Assembly: GCA_030754235.1 (NCBI GenBank)
Contig: JASMAS010000051.1
Location: forward strand, 1-64,000
Direction of reading: 5' to 3'
DNA from: Litorilituus sp.
GTDB taxonomy: Bacteria > Pseudomonadota > Gammaproteobacteria > Enterobacterales > Alteromonadaceae
Length of the DNA: 64,000 nt
Below the pieces are notes generated by a model. The model saw only the letters and a list, made by a program, of their open reading frames with translations, did no database searches and was not told the origin of the DNA. A program made the position numbers and the translations under genes. Positions within the stretch are counted from its first letter, which is position 1. The number at the start of each line of letters is the position of its first letter. This document shows positions 56,458 through 64,000 of this stretch, in pieces.

Positions 56458-56566
56458 GCATCCCGTATTATGTCTTTGTAATATTAAGGGTGGTTTGTTT
56501 TCTTTTCGAGACTAAGTAACAAAATCAGTTAGTTGGCATTTTATCATCATTTGTGACAAACCAAAC

Positions 56567-56583
56567 GCGCTATTAATTAGCGC
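56567..56583 (+). terminator. Weak hairpin downstream of prmA
   Basis: GCGCTA (56567-56572) and TAGCGC (56578-56583) form a 6-bp stem with a 5-base loop, then ATTTGTC. It is 110 bases after the prmA stop and lacks a good T run. Confidence 0.3.
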
Positions 56584-56620
56584 ATTTGTCGCTATTTACT
56601 CGGTTATTAGTGTAATACAG

Positions 56621-56751
56621 CTACTTTAACGCCTCCACTCGCTGCTTAATACTGGGATGAGAGCTAAAGTATTGCGATAACTTGTTTGAATTTGATGCTT
56701 CTTGCTCGCCTACGATTAATAGCAATGCATCAGCTAATGCTGTTTCCATCA
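56621..56751 (-). pseudogene. 3' remnant of an M48-family metallopeptidase gene
   Basis: The last ~42 codons of a minus-strand frame read ALADALLLIVGEQEASNSNK followed by LSQYFSSHPSIKQRVEAL, the C-terminal pattern (F-S-S-H-P ... R-x-x-x-L) of M48 peptidases. The rest of the gene, including HExxH, is absent. Upstream in the same frame is IS66 transposase sequence, so the ORF at 56621-56842 is a chimera made by deletion or insertion. Confidence 0.6.
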
Positions 56752-57465
56752 TGAAGCGCAAGATATCGTCTTGATAATCTCTTAATCGCTCTAATAATGC
56801 TCTTGATTTGGTTCGTTTGAATCGGCCTCGCTGACCTTTCAATCGGCTAATTTATCAAGTGGTGGACATTTAATGTCACCTTGAGCCAATATTTTTTGAT
56901 ATGCCTCGATATATTGTGCTTTTGTGTCTTCGTTTAGGCTAGTCTCATCAATTTGATGTGTATTAATTTCTTTAATAAGAATTTGCATATTCTTTGCCCA
57001 TTGCATGCCGTCTTGCGCCCATGACCTTTCTAATTTTCGCATATGATGAGCATTACACAAGGCATGTTGGTACTTCGTATATTGATGATACGGTTTCCAA
57101 TGTTAGTAACAGAGTACGTCTGTGAAGTGAGGTAAAATATCGGCGTATTCCATCGCTATTTTACCTCTGTTTTCATGTGTGGGCAAAAATATGTCTAACC
57201 AGTCGTTGATGCACCATGAAGTCATCGTCTTTTACTACCGATATTAATGCCCGTTTCATCAACGTGTAATGCTTGAAAAGTGGTTTGCAAGGCTTTCTTG
57301 AACGCTGTTTCTGCTCCAGAGTACTTTACCAAGGCCGCAGCCTGTTCATTACAGTTAAATAAACTACCTGTACTGATTGGAATATCAAGTTGGTCAGATA
57401 AGTATTCTTCAATGCGGTTATGCAGCAGCAAAGAGAACAATGTGTTCAAGATACAGCAGCAAAAC
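56752..57465 (-). pseudogene. Decayed IS66-family transposase
   Basis: Three broken minus-strand frames correspond in order to the middle and C-terminal part of an IS66 TnpC transposase: EEYLSDQLDIPISTGSLFNC and HVDETGINIGSKRR (57222-57449); CNAHHMRKLERSWAQDGMQW and KILAQGDIKCPP (56839-57060); and GRFKRTKSRALLERLRDYQDD (56752-56842). The N-terminal and catalytic C-terminal parts, the tnpA/tnpB genes and clear inverted repeats are missing. It is an inactive remnant, lying directly next to the 3' end of the MalT-like regulator gene. Confidence 0.85.
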
Positions 57466-59799
57466 TTAACTAACTTGGCATTTTGCTGCTTCTTTTCTAG
57501 ATTTTACCCCTAGCTTTCTATAGATATTTTTTAAATGAAACTTCACTGTTTGCTCTGAAATATCTAGCTCTAAAGCAATTTGTTTATTTCTGAGGTTTTC
57601 CTTTAACAAAGCGTATATTTCTTTTTCTTTTTTACTTAAAATATTTGCAGTACTGGACGATTGATCCTCAAGTAAATCAAATAACTTAATCCGATTGTAC
57701 TCTTGTAAAATCTTTTTTAAAACCTCTTCAGGTATATACGATCTCATTTGCCATAACAATCCTATAAACTGCTTATCTTGTAACACTTCAATAAATTCAC
57801 TGGGTAAATATGAAGGCTTATCAATAAGTAGTTTTATCGCTTTAACTTGTAAATAAAATAATGTATTGCCATGATGACGAGCAAAACTAAGTGATTCATT
57901 TAACAAATGAAGATCATAATTATTTGTTTGCATCATAATTTCAAATTCATTAATCTTTAACCGCCATGGTAACAAGGTGAATGGCCGTAATTTAATGATG
58001 TATCTACTTAATTGACTATTTAAATTTGGATTTTTTAAAATAACCAGCTTGGCAAGCTGGCTAAGTAGTTCATCTAAATGTTCCATAGGGTTATCTTGTA
58101 AATGACTATCAGCAATAGCGAACCAGTTAGGTATATAATCAAATGCCCCTTTTAATAGAGCTACCTTGATTGCTATCGGATAGAGAATGGCATACAAGTC
58201 TAACCATGATTCGTTGTGCTTCAGTTTTTTAATGAGTTGATCTAATGTGCGAATAGCAGGGAGTAAACCACTTAAATAGTTAAGTTCTAATTTCACAATA
58301 TGTAGTGATAATCGAATACTTTTATCTTGACTAAAGTGACTTTGAATTTCGACGCTTACCTTATGTAAAAGTTGCCTGGTAGCGTTAAACTGACAATTAA
58401 GTAGTAAACTATGACTTTGATGAATATTCAAAAAAGTCACGCCATATTTAGCATTATCAATTAATTGATAAAACTTCTTTGCCTTAAATATGGCTACTTC
58501 TACTTTGTCATTGGCCCCTTTTTGTAACCAAGCTACTGAAAGTAAATTATTAATTAATGCTCGAGTAAAAGGTCCTGCCTGTAAATTACTTTCACTGAAG
58601 TTTTGTAGCTTTTGTAAATGGCTAGTTTCAAAAATTCGACCTTCATGTAACTTTATCATGGCGTCAGCGACCGTCCATGTTAATTGATCACTGCCACGCT
58701 TATTCCAAAAAATATCAACCAACTTTCGAGATTGATTAACATTACCCAATTTATAATTAACAATACAAAATAACCAGGCTACCACTTCATACTTATTTGC
58801 TTCTTCTTCAGTGAATAATTTATATAAAGACTGCAAATTGGTCAGACCATGTTGGATCCATTCTAACAGCCTCCCCATCTTATTTAAGTACTTTATAGCG
58901 CGTTCTTTTTCTCCTATTTGCAACATCAAATTAATTGCGGATTCAATATCATTGTTTAATAAAAATCGCTCAGCTAAAGTGTAGTGAACACGCTGTAGCT
59001 CATCACTATGAGTACGAAGCAAGCTGATAAAGCAAGCATGTTTTAATAGAGGTAAAAGTTGCCAAGATTGCTCATGATAAATCGTTAACCCATTAAGTTC
59101 ATGTTCACAGTAATCTTCGATTTTTACCTGTTCAAAATTGTTAAAAAGTACTTTTGGGAGTAAGTCGACAATACTCAAGCTAATTAAAAACTCTCGATTA
59201 ATGTCACAGCATGATGTAAGTAAATTGCACTTAACATAATCAGCTAAAGAATTTGGTGAAGCATTGACAATATTTTTTAAATGTTCAATGTCTCTCGCCT
59301 GTTGCGTTTTTCGTCTAATTAAATCTACCAACACAGGCCACCCTAGGCTCATCGCGTAAATATCTTTTATTAAAATATGATTATGAGAATCAATTAAATT
59401 GCATACCTGTTGATAATTAAACCTAAGTTTTTGAAAATTAATAACGTCAAACTGATTTAATGAAGCCAAACTGATCGATACATTACTTTGTAAAGTTTTT
59501 GATGAAATGATCACTTGAGCATTACTTGGTAAATTATCAAAAAGCTGCAATATAAATATATCTGTAAATAAATGTATGTCATCTATGTAGAGAACAGAAT
59601 TGGCATCATCACTATTTTTAATAAAGTAAGAATATACATTGCTATGATCTTTGGTTTTATTATCTAACCATAATTTTTCACCTGAATGCTCATTGAAATG
59701 TTGCTGTAAAAGAGTAGTTTTACCAAAACCAGTTTGAGCATAGATCCAAACAAACTGCGACGATTTTTTTATTAACTCAACGCGACTGATACTCTGCAT
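57466..59799 (-). CDS. MalT-like LuxR-family transcriptional activator
   Basis: A 777-aa STAND/LAL-type regulator. The N-terminus has an ATP-binding P-loop (AQTGFGKTT, residues 21-29) and a Walker B-like VLYIDDIHLF. A long helical, TPR-like middle follows, then a C-terminal LuxR helix-turn-helix (RNKQIALELDISEQTVKFHL, KNIYRKLGVKSRKEA). In MalT the middle part binds the inducer, and the active form oligomerises on direct repeats. ATG 59799 is chosen; a TTG at 59817 is possible. It is divergent from the hydantoinase operon and probably activates it. The gene ends right at the IS66 remnant. Confidence 0.88.
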   Translation of the reverse strand: MQSISRVELIKKSSQFVWIYAQTGFGKTTLLQQHFNEHSGEKLWLDNKTKDHSNVYSYFIKNSDDANSVLYIDDIHLFTDIFILQLFDNLPSNAQVIISSKTLQSNVSISLASLNQFDVINFQKLRFNYQQVCNLIDSHNHILIKDIYAMSLGWPVLVDLIRRKTQQARDIEHLKNIVNASPNSLADYVKCNLLTSCCDINREFLISLSIVDLLPKVLFNNFEQVKIEDYCEHELNGLTIYHEQSWQLLPLLKHACFISLLRTHSDELQRVHYTLAERFLLNNDIESAINLMLQIGEKERAIKYLNKMGRLLEWIQHGLTNLQSLYKLFTEEEANKYEVVAWLFCIVNYKLGNVNQSRKLVDIFWNKRGSDQLTWTVADAMIKLHEGRIFETSHLQKLQNFSESNLQAGPFTRALINNLLSVAWLQKGANDKVEVAIFKAKKFYQLIDNAKYGVTFLNIHQSHSLLLNCQFNATRQLLHKVSVEIQSHFSQDKSIRLSLHIVKLELNYLSGLLPAIRTLDQLIKKLKHNESWLDLYAILYPIAIKVALLKGAFDYIPNWFAIADSHLQDNPMEHLDELLSQLAKLVILKNPNLNSQLSRYIIKLRPFTLLPWRLKINEFEIMMQTNNYDLHLLNESLSFARHHGNTLFYLQVKAIKLLIDKPSYLPSEFIEVLQDKQFIGLLWQMRSYIPEEVLKKILQEYNRIKLFDLLEDQSSSTANILSKKEKEIYALLKENLRNKQIALELDISEQTVKFHLKNIYRKLGVKSRKEAAKCQVS

Positions 59800-59941
59800 A
59801 AAATAGCACCCAACCAAAATATAACGTAGCTAATTATTTTTTAATATTTTAAAAAAATTAAAAAGCATGATTAATGAAATTTACACTTAATACGATTTAA
59901 ATTTACCGAAAGAATAACGGTTATTTTTTAAACAAAAAACA

Positions 59942-59974
59942 CTACCCATTATTTATTCAAACCTACCCATTATT
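59942..59974. promoter_or_regulatory. Direct repeat CTACCCATTATT, 21-bp period (operator candidate)
   Basis: The 12-mer CTACCCATTATT occurs at 59942-59953 and again at 59963-59974. The start-to-start distance of 21 bases is two helical turns, so both copies face the same side of the DNA. It lies in the divergent control region of the MalT-like regulator and the hydantoinase operon. MalT-type activators bind direct repeats, which makes this a strong binding-site candidate. Confidence 0.6.
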
Positions 59975-60020
59975 GTCAAATAAATTATTTTGAACTGGTT
60001 TAGTGTAGTAAAAAAGTAGG

Positions 60021-60074
60021 TATAAATAATGATTCGACTAGGTAAAGAGGTGTAAATAATGATTCGACTAGGTG
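60021..60074 (+). repeat. 30-bp tandem duplication at the hydantoinase start
   Basis: The sequence TAAATAATGATTCGACTAGG appears twice with a 30-base period (ATGs at 60029 and 60059). The first copy reads MIRLGKEV and then stops at 60053-60055; the second is the true gene start. AAAGAGGTG, the ribosome-binding site of the gene, lies inside the first copy. The mini-ORF may act as a leader or may be a harmless replication slip. Confidence 0.75.
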
Positions 60075-61603
60075 TAGATGTAGGTGGTACAAACACCGAT
60101 GCAGTGCTTATTGAAGGTAAAAACATACTTGCTACAACAAAACAAGCAACAACCGATGATATCCAAACAGGCATTGTCAATGCGATAACTAAGGTAGTAA
60201 AAAGTAGCAGAATAAAAATGACAAACATTGATTACTGCATGATTGGTACAACGCAATTCACCAATGCATTTGTTCAAAGACAAGAACTCAACAGTGTTGC
60301 CATTATAAGGCTTGGGTTACCTGCTGCCGCAGCGTTACCTCCTTTATCTGGCTGGCAAAATGAATTAAAAGACGCTTTTGAGCATAAGACATATATGTTA
60401 CAAGGCGGGCACCACTTTGACGGCAAAGTAAATAGCGATTTAAACGAAATGCAATTGGATGAAGCCATTCAAGATATCTTATTAGAAGGGTATCCAGCCG
60501 TTACAATATGTTCAATATTTTCTCCAATTAATCAAGATTTTGAGCTATTAGTAGAGAACAAAATAAAGCAAGTGGCCCCTCATATAAGGTTGAGCTTATC
60601 CCACCAAATTGGTCGTGTTGGTTTAATGGAAAGAGAAAACTCGGCAATTATGAATGCGTCTTTAGCATGTTTAGCAGATAAAGTTGTCAATGCTTTTGAA
60701 AACTCACTATCTAGCCTAGGAGTCACAGCGCCTTTATATATTACACAAAATGATGGCACATTAATGAGTGCTGATGCTGTTAGAAAATATCCTGTGATGA
60801 CTTTTGCTTCAGGTCCTACTAATTCTATGCGCGGAGCTGCATTTTTATCTGGTTTGAAAGATGCGATTGTGGCTGATATTGGCGGAACAACAACTGATAT
60901 AGGCATGTTACAAGATGGGTTTCCAAGAGAATCTAGTGTACACGTTGATATTGGCGGAGTCAGAACCAATTTCAGAATGCCTGACATTATTGCACTTGGT
61001 TTAGGGGGAGGTAGTATTATAGATCCTCTGTCAAACTTTTCTATAGGACCTCAATCTGTTGGTTATAAATTACTTCAACAAGGTAAAAGCTTTGGAGGTA
61101 CACATTTAACGACTACAGATATAGCCATCAAAAGAAACTATATCCAAATTACTGGATCTGAGCCGAATAATGTGTCGTTAACAGAGCAAACTTTAAAAAA
61201 AATTGAAAACAATATCGATGCGCTTCTTGTCTCTGGGTTAGATCAAATTAAAACTTCAAGTGCCGAAGTGCCTCTTATTTTAGTCGGGGGCGGTCACTGC
61301 ATCATAAAAAACACCCCAAAAGGCATCAGTAAAATGATATCACCGAAGCATGCAGAAGTTGCCAATGCCATTGGCGCGAGTATCGGACAAGTTGCCGGTG
61401 AAATAGAACATTTTTTTGAGTACCAAACTCAACCAAGAGAAGAATGTATTGCTCAAGCAAAACAAATGGCCATTGATAAAGCAATTATCGCAGGGGCAAT
61501 CGCCAGTACAGTCAGTATTTTAGACATACAGGAAATTCCCTTAAGTTATGTCAAAGGACAAGCAACACGAATTAAAGTTAAAGCCACTGGCCAGTTATTT
61601 TAA
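60059..61603 (+). CDS. Hydantoinase/oxoprolinase family protein (HyuA-like)
   Basis: Predicted ATP-dependent ring-opening enzyme of 514 aa. The N-terminal nucleotide-binding motif is DVGGTNTD (residues 7-14), and a second actin-like phosphate motif is ADIGGTTTDIGML (from about residue 272). ALGLGGGSI and LVGGGHCII are further family features. It lacks the long C-terminal part of the ~690-aa HyuA proteins, and no HyuB gene is nearby; instead a DUF917 gene follows after 15 bases. This short HyuA plus DUF917 pairing is known among uncharacterised hydantoinases. The substrate may be a hydantoin, thiohydantoin or oxoproline-like lactam, by inference. Confidence 0.9.
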   Translation: MIRLGVDVGGTNTDAVLIEGKNILATTKQATTDDIQTGIVNAITKVVKSSRIKMTNIDYCMIGTTQFTNAFVQRQELNSVAIIRLGLPAAAALPPLSGWQNELKDAFEHKTYMLQGGHHFDGKVNSDLNEMQLDEAIQDILLEGYPAVTICSIFSPINQDFELLVENKIKQVAPHIRLSLSHQIGRVGLMERENSAIMNASLACLADKVVNAFENSLSSLGVTAPLYITQNDGTLMSADAVRKYPVMTFASGPTNSMRGAAFLSGLKDAIVADIGGTTTDIGMLQDGFPRESSVHVDIGGVRTNFRMPDIIALGLGGGSIIDPLSNFSIGPQSVGYKLLQQGKSFGGTHLTTTDIAIKRNYIQITGSEPNNVSLTEQTLKKIENNIDALLVSGLDQIKTSSAEVPLILVGGGHCIIKNTPKGISKMISPKHAEVANAIGASIGQVAGEIEHFFEYQTQPREECIAQAKQMAIDKAIIAGAIASTVSILDIQEIPLSYVKGQATRIKVKATGQLF

Positions 61604-61618
61604 CGGGGAGAGAATAAA

Positions 61619-62710
61619 ATGATAAAACTTACACCAGCTAATTTAGAAGATTATGCCAGAGGCGCCGCGCTTTTGGGGGCTGGCGGCGGTGGAGACCCTT
61701 ATATTGGTCGCCTACTGGCTGAACAAGCCATTACGCAGTATGGCTTGCCTGAAATTATCAGTGTCGATGAACTAGATGATAATGCCACTGTTATCTCAAT
61801 TGCCATGATAGGTGCTCCCACTGTATTGGTAGAAAAAGCCTGCTCAGGAGACGATTTAGACTTACTTATTAAAGAAATGTCTCGCCAATTAGGTAAAAAA
61901 GTCGATGCTCTCATGCCTATAGAAATAGGCGGAGTAAACTCTTGCTTACCCATAGTTGCCGCAGTAAGAACAGGATTACCGCTGGTTAATTGTGATGGTA
62001 TGGGAAGGGCTTTTCCGTGTTTAGAAATGGTGACATTTAATGTTTATGGAGAAAGTATATCACCGGTCGTCATGACTGATGAACATGGTAATGCCGTAAC
62101 AATAAACACTGCTTCAGCTAAAAAAGCTGAAAATTTTGCGCGCAGTGTACTTAGTGAAATGGGCTTAAGTGGCATGATTTCTTGCTACCCTATGAAAGGA
62201 TCGCAACTTAAAAAATGGGCAGTCAAAGACACTATGACCTGTGCTTTACACATAGGTGAAGCCATTAAAGAAGGCCGCCAGCAAGATAATGCTGTAAAGA
62301 CCTTAGTCAATCGTTTAAACGAAACACAATATTACACCAATGCTCAAATACTCGTAGATGGGAAAGTTATTGATGTCTTTAGAGAAACCCGAGACGGATT
62401 TTCTTTTGGTCACTGCGTTGTCGAACCTTTTGACGGTGAAGAAAACGTTACTTTAACCTTTCAAAATGAGTTTATTGCGGCTGAGAAAAATGGTCAATAT
62501 ATTGCCACTGTGCCCGATATTATCGCGGTCATTGATAGAGAGAATGCCGAGCCCATTACGGCAGAAACACTGCGCTTTGGACAAAGAGTTAATGTCTTAG
62601 CGATGGATGTTCCTTCAGTAATGAGGACAGAAAAAGCACTCGGAGTTTTTGGTCCTCAATGTTTTGGCCTTGGATGTGATTACAAAAGATTAACAAAAGT
62701 AGACCAATAA
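61619..62710 (+). CDS. DUF917 protein (S-methyl-thiohydantoin desulfurase family)
   Basis: A 363-aa cytoplasmic protein of the DUF917 family, now named in Pfam after S-methyl thiohydantoin desulfurase (from my memory of PF06032). Typical stretches are YARGAALLGAGGGGDPYIGR near the N-terminus, ISIAMIGAPTVLVEKA, LMPIEIGGVNSCLPIVAA and LPLVNCDGMGRAFPCLEM, with a C-terminal LGVFGPQCFGLGCDY. Family members sit beside HyuA-like proteins. Here the gene is 15 bases after the hydantoinase, in one operon. The reaction is inferred: processing of a hydantoin-type ring or removal of its sulfur substituent. Confidence 0.88.
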   Translation: MIKLTPANLEDYARGAALLGAGGGGDPYIGRLLAEQAITQYGLPEIISVDELDDNATVISIAMIGAPTVLVEKACSGDDLDLLIKEMSRQLGKKVDALMPIEIGGVNSCLPIVAAVRTGLPLVNCDGMGRAFPCLEMVTFNVYGESISPVVMTDEHGNAVTINTASAKKAENFARSVLSEMGLSGMISCYPMKGSQLKKWAVKDTMTCALHIGEAIKEGRQQDNAVKTLVNRLNETQYYTNAQILVDGKVIDVFRETRDGFSFGHCVVEPFDGEENVTLTFQNEFIAAEKNGQYIATVPDIIAVIDRENAEPITAETLRFGQRVNVLAMDVPSVMRTEKALGVFGPQCFGLGCDYKRLTKVDQ

Positions 62711-62761
62711 TGATGAACTAAAATTAAATAAGTCTTCGCGGACTAACTAGGGGAAAATGAA

Positions 62762-64000
62762 ATGAAAATAAATATAAAATATAGTTGTTTGCTTTTAGCC
62801 TTTACATCAACATTTGGCTATGCACAAGACAACAAAGATGAGCTATCTATTGAAGTAATCGAAGTGACTTCTAGAAAAAAAGTCGAATCACTACAAACTG
62901 TTCCTGATGCCATTACCGCTTTTAATGATGATGAAATAGAATCAGCACGTATTAAAAATGTTAATGATTTTGCTACACTCACACCTAACCTCATTATTCG
63001 CGAAGGCTTTAGAGCTGGTGCCTCCTACATCACTATGCGAGGAATTACCACTCCTCAACAGGGCTTGCCGCCAGTCACCTTTGTCGTTGATGATGTACAA
63101 GCCGGTGCTTTAGATTTTGTCAATCAAGATTTAGATAATATTGAGAGGATAGAAGTTTTAAGAGGCCCCCAAGGGGCTCTTTATGGAGCGGGAGCTATGG
63201 CGGGAGCCATTAATATTATTACAAAACATCCTGCTGATGAATGGGAAGGCGCACTAAAACTCGATGTCGCACAAGGTAATGATCGCACCTTCAATGCCAG
63301 TGTTTCAGGCGGCGTTACTGACGAAATTTTTGCTAGGGTCAACGGTAAGATTCGTAAGGCCGATGGTCTTATTGATTCTGCACAAGGAGAAGATTTAGAC
63401 TTTAACGACACACAATCTTTTAATACTCGCTGGCAATATTTGGGAGAACAATTTTCCGCTGATTTAAGATACGCTTACTCTGATTATGAGCAAGGTGCGA
63501 TTATGCAAGATTTAGTGGCTTTAAGCTCAGATCTCGATGATTTTTCAGGGCCTGGTCCTGAGCGTAGTTTTATTGGACGAGAACATAGAACCTTTCACCA
63601 AGGCAGCGTAAAACTCATCTACGAATTTACAGGTGCTGACGTCATGTGGATAAGCTCAGATCAAAAAGTTGATCAACATTTACTCGGTGACGTAGATTGG
63701 TCAGCAGCGCCTCTTTTTATTCAAGATTTAACGGATGATTTTGCTGTAAAGAGTCACGAGTTTAGAGTTTCTTCAAACTCTAGCGATAGCTATGATTGGC
63801 TCTTTGGTGCTTATTACCAAGAACGAAAAGGCTTAAATGATCTTACACTCCGATTAGAGCCCGAATTAAGAGTAGTCGGTCCAAGTATTTTTACCCAAAT
63901 ACATCAAAAGAAAGACGAAATAAACGCAGTATTTGCACAAGTTACCGCTGATTTAACGGACAACTTAGAGTTAACGATAGCTGCACGTTACGACAGTGTT
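62762..64000 (+). CDS. TonB-dependent receptor (partial, runs off the window)
   Basis: An open frame from ATG 62762 (AGGGGAAA upstream) to the window edge, 413 codons without a stop. The signal peptide is MKINIKYSCLLLAFTSTFG-like, ending at YAQ near residue 21. The plug domain follows (IEVTSRKKVESLQTVPDAIT, NDFATLTPNLIIREGF, ITMRGITTPQQGLPPVTFVV, IERIEVLRGPQGALYGAGAM, AGAINIITKHP), then the first barrel strands. Receptors of this sub-type take up organic compounds as well as siderophores. It is 51 bases after the DUF917 gene, so it probably imports the substrate of the hydantoinase pair. Confidence 0.9.
   Translation, partial: MKINIKYSCLLLAFTSTFGYAQDNKDELSIEVIEVTSRKKVESLQTVPDAITAFNDDEIESARIKNVNDFATLTPNLIIREGFRAGASYITMRGITTPQQGLPPVTFVVDDVQAGALDFVNQDLDNIERIEVLRGPQGALYGAGAMAGAINIITKHPADEWEGALKLDVAQGNDRTFNASVSGGVTDEIFARVNGKIRKADGLIDSAQGEDLDFNDTQSFNTRWQYLGEQFSADLRYAYSDYEQGAIMQDLVALSSDLDDFSGPGPERSFIGREHRTFHQGSVKLIYEFTGADVMWISSDQKVDQHLLGDVDWSAAPLFIQDLTDDFAVKSHEFRVSSNSSDSYDWLFGAYYQERKGLNDLTLRLEPELRVVGPSIFTQIHQKKDEINAVFAQVTADLTDNLELTIAARYDSV

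What the first reader, a model, noticed from the sequence alone, without database searches (positions are those of the whole stretch)
57466..64000. Candidate undescribed catabolic module: MalT-like regulator, short HyuA, DUF917, TonB receptor
The sequence shows a divergent regulator and a tight plus-strand operon of hydantoinase/oxoprolinase, DUF917 protein and outer-membrane receptor. Known families: HyuA-like ATP-dependent ring openers, DUF917 linked to S-methyl thiohydantoin desulfurase, and TonB receptors for active uptake. I infer a system that imports and opens a hydantoin- or thiohydantoin-type molecule, possibly a breakdown product of ergothioneine or a modified peptide. A large TPR-like activator plus an energy-driven receptor for such a compound would be unusual.
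Basis: partly seen in the sequence, partly recalled or inferred. Interest (0 to 1): 0.72.

Follow-up and report, generated by a model that had tools for sequence, protein, structure and literature searches.

The report
Likely cyclic-amide ring-opening regulon
A bacterium carries two copies of a widespread but uncharacterised enzyme pair, together with an uptake receptor, a prolidase-like enzyme and a regulator whose likely DNA boxes sit in front of both operons; the system probably imports and opens small cyclic, peptide-like molecules.

Summary
In detail: a divergent LuxR/STAND regulator and a tight hyuA–DUF917–TonB-receptor operon. It is half of a larger system. 0.9 kb beyond the receptor, past the window's end, lies a second operon: prolidase-like amidohydrolase–hyuA2–DUF917-2. 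A paired DNA box (CYACYC cores, 21 bp apart) precedes both operons. It also precedes the orthologous operons of Shewanella hanedai (one) and S. corallii (two, about 16 kb apart). I read it as the regulator's operator and the whole as one regulon.

Short HyuA and a distinct DUF917 clade form a recurrent two-gene unit from Proteobacteria to haloarchaea. The host genome and 6 of 15 others with the pair have no HyuB, so DUF917 probably replaces HyuB as the hydrolytic half. Most likely reaction: HyuA phosphorylates a cyclic amide, DUF917 opens it, and the amidohydrolase cuts the linear product. The prolidase-like enzyme, recurrent peptidases, peptide-type transporters and Lrp regulators favour cyclic dipeptides over ergothioneine thiohydantoins. 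That substrate is inferred, not shown. The DUF917 proteins score far below the thiohydantoin desulfurase cut-offs. My paper searches found no biochemical work on the pair.

The parts
57466..59817 (-). regulator: STAND-type P-loop NTPase with LuxR (GerE) HTH, MalT-like architecture
   Evidence: homologue (32%) beside the pair in S. hanedai and S. corallii
59942..59974 (+). paired operator-like box 1: CTACCCATTATT twice, start-to-start 21 bp, 84 bp before the hyuA1 start
   Evidence: 0 of 2000 shuffles; same kind of box before hyuA of S. hanedai and S. corallii
60059..61603 (+). hyuA1, short (514 aa) ASKHA-type ATPase of the hydantoinase/oxoprolinase A family
   Evidence: DVGGTNTD, DIGGTTTD and GGG motifs kept
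61619..62710 (+). DUF917-1 (S-Me-THD-like, N and C domains)
62762..64000 (+). TonB-dependent receptor, cut by the window end. It ends at 64831 of contig C51 (same numbering). Beyond the window on the same contig follow: terminator-like hairpin 64840-64862; paired box 2, 65548-65580 (+); amidohydrolase 65736-66974 (+); hyuA2 66976-68526 (+); DUF917-2 68526-69620 (+); IS66-like fragment 69662-70063 (-)
   Evidence: receptor: (55-59% identical in the two Shewanella operons); hairpin: consensus match only; box 2: (0 of 2000 shuffles); amidohydrolase; hyuA2 and DUF917-2 (46 and 43% identical to pair 1); IS66: below cut-off (26.5 of 180)

Best explanation
A two-operon catabolic regulon for small cyclic, probably peptide-derived amides (2,5-diketopiperazines, that is cyclic dipeptides, first; hydantoins second). 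Proposed steps: (1) the TonB receptor takes the compound through the outer membrane (inferred); (2) the short HyuA uses ATP to phosphorylate the ring amide oxygen (inferred from kept ATPase motifs and the role of CapA/HyuA); (3) DUF917, standing where HyuB stands in known enzymes, lets water attack the activated carbon and opens the ring (inferred; its desulfurase cousin displaces methylthiol from a similar C=N carbon, recalled); (4) the prolidase-like amidohydrolase cuts the linear product (inferred); (5) the LuxR/STAND regulator senses the compound or a product and activates both operons through pairs of CYACYC boxes 21 bp apart (inferred). Shown here by comparison: the module, the tight association of short HyuA with one DUF917 clade, the absence of HyuB from this genome, the shared boxes. 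Not shown: substrate, reaction, binding of the regulator.
For: Pairing: of 41 DUF917 loci with 1.5-kb flanks, the 17 places with PF06032 scores of 162 bits or more lie with a HyuA (16 within the flank, 1 as the first of a tandem), and the 24 with 141 bits or less have none there. On a tree of 59 DUF917 proteins the label 'with HyuA' needs 2 changes against a shuffled mean of 18.1, 0 of 500 as low. HyuA and DUF917 distances agree over 27 pairs (r 0.88, 0 of 5000 permutations). Within this one genome the two pairs have different nearest relatives, and each time both genes agree (S. corallii pair 2, found later, is nearer still for both genes of pair 2). No HyuB in the own genome nor in 6 of 15 others with the pair. 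Catalysis: both ATP phosphate motifs and a GGG are kept; the 37 HyuA-associated DUF917s share invariant E72, E102, N107, D126, R130, E171, R175, E284. Regulon: box pairs before 5 of 5 HyuA-DUF917 operons seen in the own genome, S. hanedai and S. corallii; the pattern came from three and was then met at the fourth and fifth. The second operon is whole in S. corallii (76, 79 and 85% identity). Peptide theme: the amidohydrolase is nearest solved structures 3feq (named prolidase) and 3mkv; an M17 aminopeptidase beside the G412 cluster; a COG1228 relative directly after hyuA-DUF917 in Rhodococcus and beside classic HyuAB in Arthrobacter; Dpp/Opp/Nik-type SBP_bac_5 binding proteins in 2 of 3 clusters tested; Lrp/AsnC regulators; isoaspartyl peptidase and dipeptidase in Alloyangia.
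Against: No assay and no substrate. Other partners point to hydantoins or purines as much as to peptides: NCS1 permeases (9 of 19 plasmid neighbourhoods with the pair) and Asp/Glu/hydantoin racemases. The peptidase theme was not tested against a background rate. HyuB is present in 9 of 15 genomes with the pair, among them S. hanedai and S. corallii, so it could serve there. S. hanedai has no close orthologue of the amidohydrolase (best 32%). The amidohydrolase is below the Xaa-Pro dipeptidase cut-off (207.6 of 500), and of 7 plasmid relatives read none lies beside HyuA-DUF917. Cyclodipeptide oxidase, which would tie the pair to cyclic dipeptides, was over the cut-off in 0 of 398 genomes of the phylum. 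The box was not found at G412's cluster or at any other pair outside these three genomes, although regulators of the same kind lie there. A regulator homologue on an Agrobacterium pAt plasmid has no pair in the 18 kb shown. The binding proteins of the Dpp/Opp/Nik type score best with nickel models, below cut-off. Both structure models are weak.
Confidence: 0.5

Rival explanations
1. Hydantoin catabolism: the pair opens 5-substituted hydantoins and the amidohydrolase acts on the N-carbamoyl amino acid.
For: Asp/Glu/hydantoin racemase genes beside the pair in several plasmids; NCS1 permeases, a family that includes hydantoin carriers (recalled), beside the pair in relatives; N-methylhydantoinase is the best PDB match of HyuA1.
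Against: No racemase and no NCS1 permease among the genes of this module; its hydrolase is nearest prolidases.
Confidence: 0.2
2. One reading: thiohydantoin (ergothioneine-derived) breakdown.
For: DUF917 belongs to the S-Me-THD fold family.
Against: 118.3 and 104.6 bits against cut-offs of 440 and 450; 2 other paired DUF917s tested also fall far below; no ErtD over the cut-off in 4 of 4 genomes, without a positive control.
Confidence: 0.07
3. Siderophore recycling: the receptor imports a cyclic or diketopiperazine-cored siderophore and the enzymes break its ring to release iron or reuse its parts.
For: The receptor's best NCBIfam match is the siderophore receptor subfamily, 188.7 bits; nickel-type binding proteins score best in two relatives' clusters.
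Against: Below that model's cut-off (223.5), and such receptors carry many other solutes; the regulator is MalT-like, not iron-type; no iron gene was noticed in the module, but none was searched for.
Confidence: 0.08
4. HyuA is an activase or repair ATPase for DUF917 (as GlmL/MutL-type proteins are for mutases, recalled), not a substrate kinase.
For: Weak, below-cut-off matches to MutL, GlmL and CoA-dehydratase activase models; the adenosine motif GxxPGP given for CapA (PMC8453981) is absent: no PGP in HyuA1 or HyuA2.
Against: Best matches are caprolactamase alpha and N-methylhydantoinase; both phosphate motifs are kept.
Confidence: 0.1

Closest known systems
ATP-dependent lactamases (caprolactamase CapAB, 5-oxoprolinase, N-methylhydantoinase)
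   Same: HyuA-type ATPase with both phosphate motifs, in one operon with a second subunit thought to be hydrolytic; in CapA, mutations in these motifs strongly reduce product (PMC8453981, passages including the abstract).
   Different: HyuA1 has 514 residues against 689 in the CapA model; HyuB with its Asp-His-Asp-His metal site is absent from the genome and DUF917, with no histidine conserved at 90% among 37 HyuA-associated proteins, stands in its place.
(S-methyl) thiohydantoin desulfurases (DUF917/S-Me-THD family)
   Same: Same two Pfam domains and same fold family as CV_3147 (2o3i; Foldseek E 7e-15 on a low-confidence model).
   Different: Far below both NCBIfam equivalog cut-offs; HyuA partner; separate clades on the tree with near-fixed residues that solo ones mostly lack (P27, E72, M128, G182, D252).
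Non-CDPS cyclodipeptide oxidase clusters (PMC11055893, passages read)
   Same: Reported there as enriched in DUF917, hydantoin racemase and AroM genes, with dipeptide transporters and peptidases; DUF917 called experimentally uncharacterised.
   Different: No cyclodipeptide oxidase in this genome; over the cut-off in 0 of 398 genomes of the phylum.
MalT regulon
   Same: P-loop NTPase plus LuxR HTH regulator, direct-repeat boxes (resemblance to MalT sites is recalled).
   Different: MalT equivalog model scores 61.1 of 537 bits, best stretch in the HTH; no maltose genes in the module.
COG1228 prolidases (3feq/3n2c, 3mkv)
   Same: 323 bits over 408 residues; metal-site motifs DxHxH, K, MAH, IEHG and GTD present (that these are the ligands is recalled).
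   Different: Xaa-Pro dipeptidase cut-off not reached; among its PDB matches are also ochratoxinase and other amidohydrolases.

Membership tests
ATP-dependent lactamase (HyuAB/CapAB) | HyuA subunit with phosphate 1 and 2 motifs | tested here: met
   DVGGTNTD at 7 and DIGGTTTD at 273 of HyuA1; Pfam over cut-off
ATP-dependent lactamase (HyuAB/CapAB) | adenosine motif GxxPGP | tested here: not met
   no PGP in HyuA1 or HyuA2
ATP-dependent lactamase (HyuAB/CapAB) | HyuB subunit with Asp-His-Asp-His metal site | tested here: not met
   0 PF02538 matches in the genome; no His at 90% or more among 37 paired DUF917s
ATP-dependent lactamase (HyuAB/CapAB) | ATP-coupled ring opening | not testable with these tools
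   needs an enzyme assay
Thiohydantoin / S-methyl thiohydantoin desulfurase | NCBIfam equivalog score | tested here: not met
   118.3 of 440 and 104.6 of 450 for DUF917-1; 79.0 of 440 and 104.0 of 450 for DUF917-2
S-Me-THD-like superfamily (DUF917) | PF06032 and PF20906 domains | tested here: met
   both over cut-off in both proteins
MalT | equivalog score over the whole protein | tested here: not met
   61.1 of 537
STAND-LuxR regulators (MalT-like architecture) | P-loop NTPase at the N end and LuxR HTH at the C end | tested here: inconclusive
   GerE over cut-off; P-loop and DDIH read by eye; Pfam NTPase models only below cut-off
COG1228 prolidase | amidohydrolase domain with HxH, Lys, two His, Asp motifs | tested here: met
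   (motifs only, no structure)
COG1228 prolidase | hydrolysis of Xaa-Pro | not testable with these tools
   needs an assay; Xaa-Pro dipeptidase model not reached (207.6 of 500)
TonB siderophore receptor | TIGR01783 cut-off | tested here: not met
   188.7 of 223.5

The most novel reading that the evidence does not exclude
HyuA-DUF917 is an undescribed class of two-component ATP-dependent cyclic-amide hydrolase, in which DUF917 replaces the zinc subunit HyuB, and this regulon is a dedicated pathway for scavenging cyclic dipeptides: outer-membrane receptor, two ring openers of different specificity, a dipeptidase, and a STAND activator acting through box pairs. It would give genes to the bacterial breakdown of diketopiperazines.
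Probability: 0.3. Interest if true: 0.8.

Novelty: new variant of a known kind. Interest (0 to 1): 0.6.

Why it matters
Public genomes hold many neighbouring 'hydantoinase/oxoprolinase family protein' and 'DUF917' genes without a function. This locus gives the pair a two-operon regulon, a likely operator and a prolidase-like downstream enzyme, so the substrate can be sought with a short list of growth and enzyme tests. If it is a cyclic dipeptide, genes would become known for the turnover of a common class of microbial products.

Tried and rejected
Thiohydantoin/ergothioneine reading: set aside on the equivalog cut-offs; the ErtD search gave only matches below the cut-off (own best 174.4 of 650) and had no positive control. 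Link to cyclodipeptide oxidase: PF19585 over the cut-off in 0 of 398 genomes, 1 broken match below it; the paper's clusters lie mainly in other phyla, so this neither helps nor kills the idea. Structure: AlphaFold with only 3 sequences gave weak models (mean pLDDT 59.7 and 52.6); only the DUF917 match to 2o3i was searched and used. Amidohydrolase neighbourhoods on plasmids: of 7 read (of 50 listed, 318 records), 1 beside HyuAB, 1 with HyuB about 6 kb away, 5 with neither, so the amidohydrolase is no general partner of the pair. Regulator as a marker: of 81 plasmid records 50 were listed; 39 of these match beyond the HTH: 20 hold hyuA-DUF917 close by (1 Novosphingobium, 19 Rhizobium; 2 neighbourhoods read, the rest from positions), 19 are near-identical Agrobacterium plasmids, of which the 1 read has no pair in 18 kb. 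Recent insertion: the enzyme and receptor genes (GC 0.39-0.42) lie within the range of the window's 3-kb stretches (0.351-0.421), the regulator and the gap (0.32) lie below it; absence from the 7 same-genus genomes drawn and IS66-like scraps on both sides suggest gain, no more. Literature: 10 searches were answered. All 4 papers that name DUF917 were looked into by passages. None holds biochemistry of the pair; PMC12915319 lists a Clostridioides difficile permease, DUF917 and hydantoinase with neighbouring locus tags changing together in an hcpR transcriptome, and PMC7513527 lists both genes among strain-variable genes. Most subscription journals are not held.
Full report
What is there. The window is the first 64 kb of contig C51 of a 3.3-Mb genome, and the contig goes on to 70544. 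The TonB receptor is complete there (62762-64831). A second operon follows: an amidohydrolase (65736-66974), a second short HyuA (66976-68526) and a second DUF917 (68526-69620), with one base or less between genes. Then come an IS66-like fragment and the contig end. The genome has two HyuA, two DUF917 and no HyuB.

Is the linkage real? A pattern-based scan of one genome per species (close relatives only) gave two loci for DUF917-1, Shewanella hanedai and S. corallii (70 and 68% identity). Both carry hyuA-DUF917-TonB, with the regulator on the other strand behind the receptor (64%, 68-70%, 55-59% and 32% identity). A distant genome of the phylum, G412, has regulator, hyuA, DUF917 and receptor in a row, with an M17 aminopeptidase next to them. 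In the family 27 of 196 genomes (the own included) have a DUF917, none of the 7 other same-genus genomes drawn.

The pair is the unit. In 41 loci with short flanks, the 17 DUF917 places with PF06032 at 162 bits or more lie with a HyuA (16 within the flank; in L064 the HyuA follows a second DUF917, seen in L072), and the 24 at 141 bits or less have none there (scores). On the tree of 59 proteins the HyuA-associated ones (37) and the solo ones (22) need only 2 label changes, against a shuffled mean of 18.1. The root is not known and several long branches are unsure. HyuA and DUF917 distances agree over 27 pairs (r 0.88, 0 of 5000 permutations). That test does not remove common descent of the hosts. 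Within this one genome, though, both genes of pair 1 are nearest Shewanella, and both genes of pair 2 were nearest the Rhizobium/Aureimonas/Aminobacter group in that sample and nearest S. corallii's second operon once it was found. The pair also occurs in Streptomycetaceae, Bacillota including lactobacilli, and Haloferax, in both gene orders. Of 15 other genomes with the pair, 6 have no HyuB and 9 have one, S. hanedai and S. corallii among the 9.

What the proteins keep. Short HyuAs keep both ATP phosphate motifs, an NDGT and a late GGG motif nearly without exception in 28 sequences (for the N-terminal motif only 18 had letters). They lack the C-terminal part of CapA-type proteins, and HyuA1 and HyuA2 lack the PGP motif. 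HyuA-associated DUF917s have fixed acidic and basic residues but no histidine conserved at 90%, so a copy of HyuB's zinc site is unlikely. DUF917-1 matches 2o3i by sequence and by a weak model. Neither DUF917 reaches the thiohydantoin desulfurase cut-offs, nor do 2 other paired and 2 solo ones tested.

The regulon. Between regulator and hyuA1 lies an exact 12-base direct repeat, CTACCCATTATT, 21 bp start to start. The stretches before hyuA in S. hanedai and S. corallii hold the same kind of pair (CTACTCGTTTT/CCACTCTTTTT, and CCACTCTTTTT twice), also 21 bp apart (the S. hanedai pair was seen by eye, the repeat finder did not list it). A scan for two CYACYC cores 21 bp apart, made from these three, then found a fourth place in the own contig at 65548, before the amidohydrolase operon. 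The S. corallii orthologue of that operon (76, 79 and 85% identity, about 16 kb from the first operon) carries the pair too, 109 bp before its start. The distances to the start codons are 84, 155, 56, 92 and 109 bp. Over all 1.24 Mb fetched (125 sequences, overlapping ones counted again) the core pair occurs at 6 distinct places: these five promoters and one place inside a DUF917 frame of Nonomuraea (L081, 7337). In a 0.94-Mb part of this, other spacings from 12 to 32 bp give 0 to 2 hits each, 21 bp gives 4. Shuffles of the first four upstream stretches gave 0, 0, 0 and 1 of 2000 with a hit; the fifth was not shuffled. The five sites share C.AC.C.TT.T......AAA.C.AC.C.TT.T. No box was found at G412's cluster or at the pairs of other organisms. 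The regulator is the only regulator in the module, so I take the boxes as its operator; binding is not shown.

Neighbours in other organisms. Of 19 plasmid neighbourhoods with the pair (L049-L060, L079-L083, L093, L094), 10 have a LuxR-type regulator, all Alphaproteobacteria; 9 have an ABC transporter and 9 an NCS1 permease near the pair (three stretches had no listed genes and were read with BLAST). In the host's family the pair lies with an NCS1 permease (4 of 4 proteins tested) and an Lrp/AsnC regulator (4 of 4 tested), and in 3 of 8 loci with a TonB receptor. Peptidases recur: M17 in G412, isoaspartyl peptidase and dipeptidase in Alloyangia, M15 in Arsenophonus and, a little further off, Parageobacillus, a COG1228 relative in Rhodococcus (34%). 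I have no background rate for these. Classic HyuAB lies beside the same kind of amidohydrolase in Arthrobacter Rue61a, which fits DUF917 and HyuB being alternatives.

Mechanism. In caprolactamase, CapA is thought to phosphorylate (or carboxylate) the lactim and CapB's metal site to hydrolyse it (PMC8453981, passages). I propose the same division here with DUF917 as the hydrolase. The chemistry is plausible because the related desulfurase displaces a thiol from a C=N carbon (recalled), as DUF917 would displace phosphate here. The prolidase-like amidohydrolase under the same boxes suggests that the product is a dipeptide, perhaps ending in proline, hence a cyclic dipeptide as the ring. This last step is the one to doubt most.

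Against. No assay; racemases and NCS1 permeases elsewhere fit hydantoins; S. hanedai lacks a close amidohydrolase; no cyclodipeptide oxidase; several genomes with the pair also have HyuB; the receptor points to no particular solute.

Verdict. A real, conserved and probably co-regulated module with an uncharacterised enzyme pairing at its heart.

Noticed in passing
60019-60080: A tandem duplication of about 29 bp around the hyuA1 start makes an 8-codon leader frame (MIRLGKEV, stop; read by eye) that repeats the protein's own first residues just before the real start.
   Followed up: no
56458-57465: Frames that look by eye like scraps of an M48-type peptidase and an IS66 transposase fill the gap after prmA. 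In 2 of 6 same-genus loci read (7 fetched) a dus-like gene follows prmA, in the other 4 a different protein does.
   Followed up: partly
L049, L050, L052, L053, L059: Several pairs have extra DUF917 genes: two after hyuA in Aminobacter, Rhizobium, Aureimonas and Qingshengfaniella, three around hyuA in Haloferax mediterranei, which may mean DUF917 hetero-oligomers.
   Followed up: no
L038-L044: Solo DUF917s of the host's family sit near a TonB receptor in 6 of 7 loci; in L038 the neighbours are an NCS1 permease, an Lrp/AsnC regulator and an M14 carboxypeptidase by Pfam, and genes of like size lie in the others: perhaps a second, HyuA-free system.
   Followed up: partly
L095: Ketogulonicigenium plasmid: classic HyuA-HyuB, an M20-type hydrolase, an AroM protein and a DUF917 gene together.
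   Followed up: no
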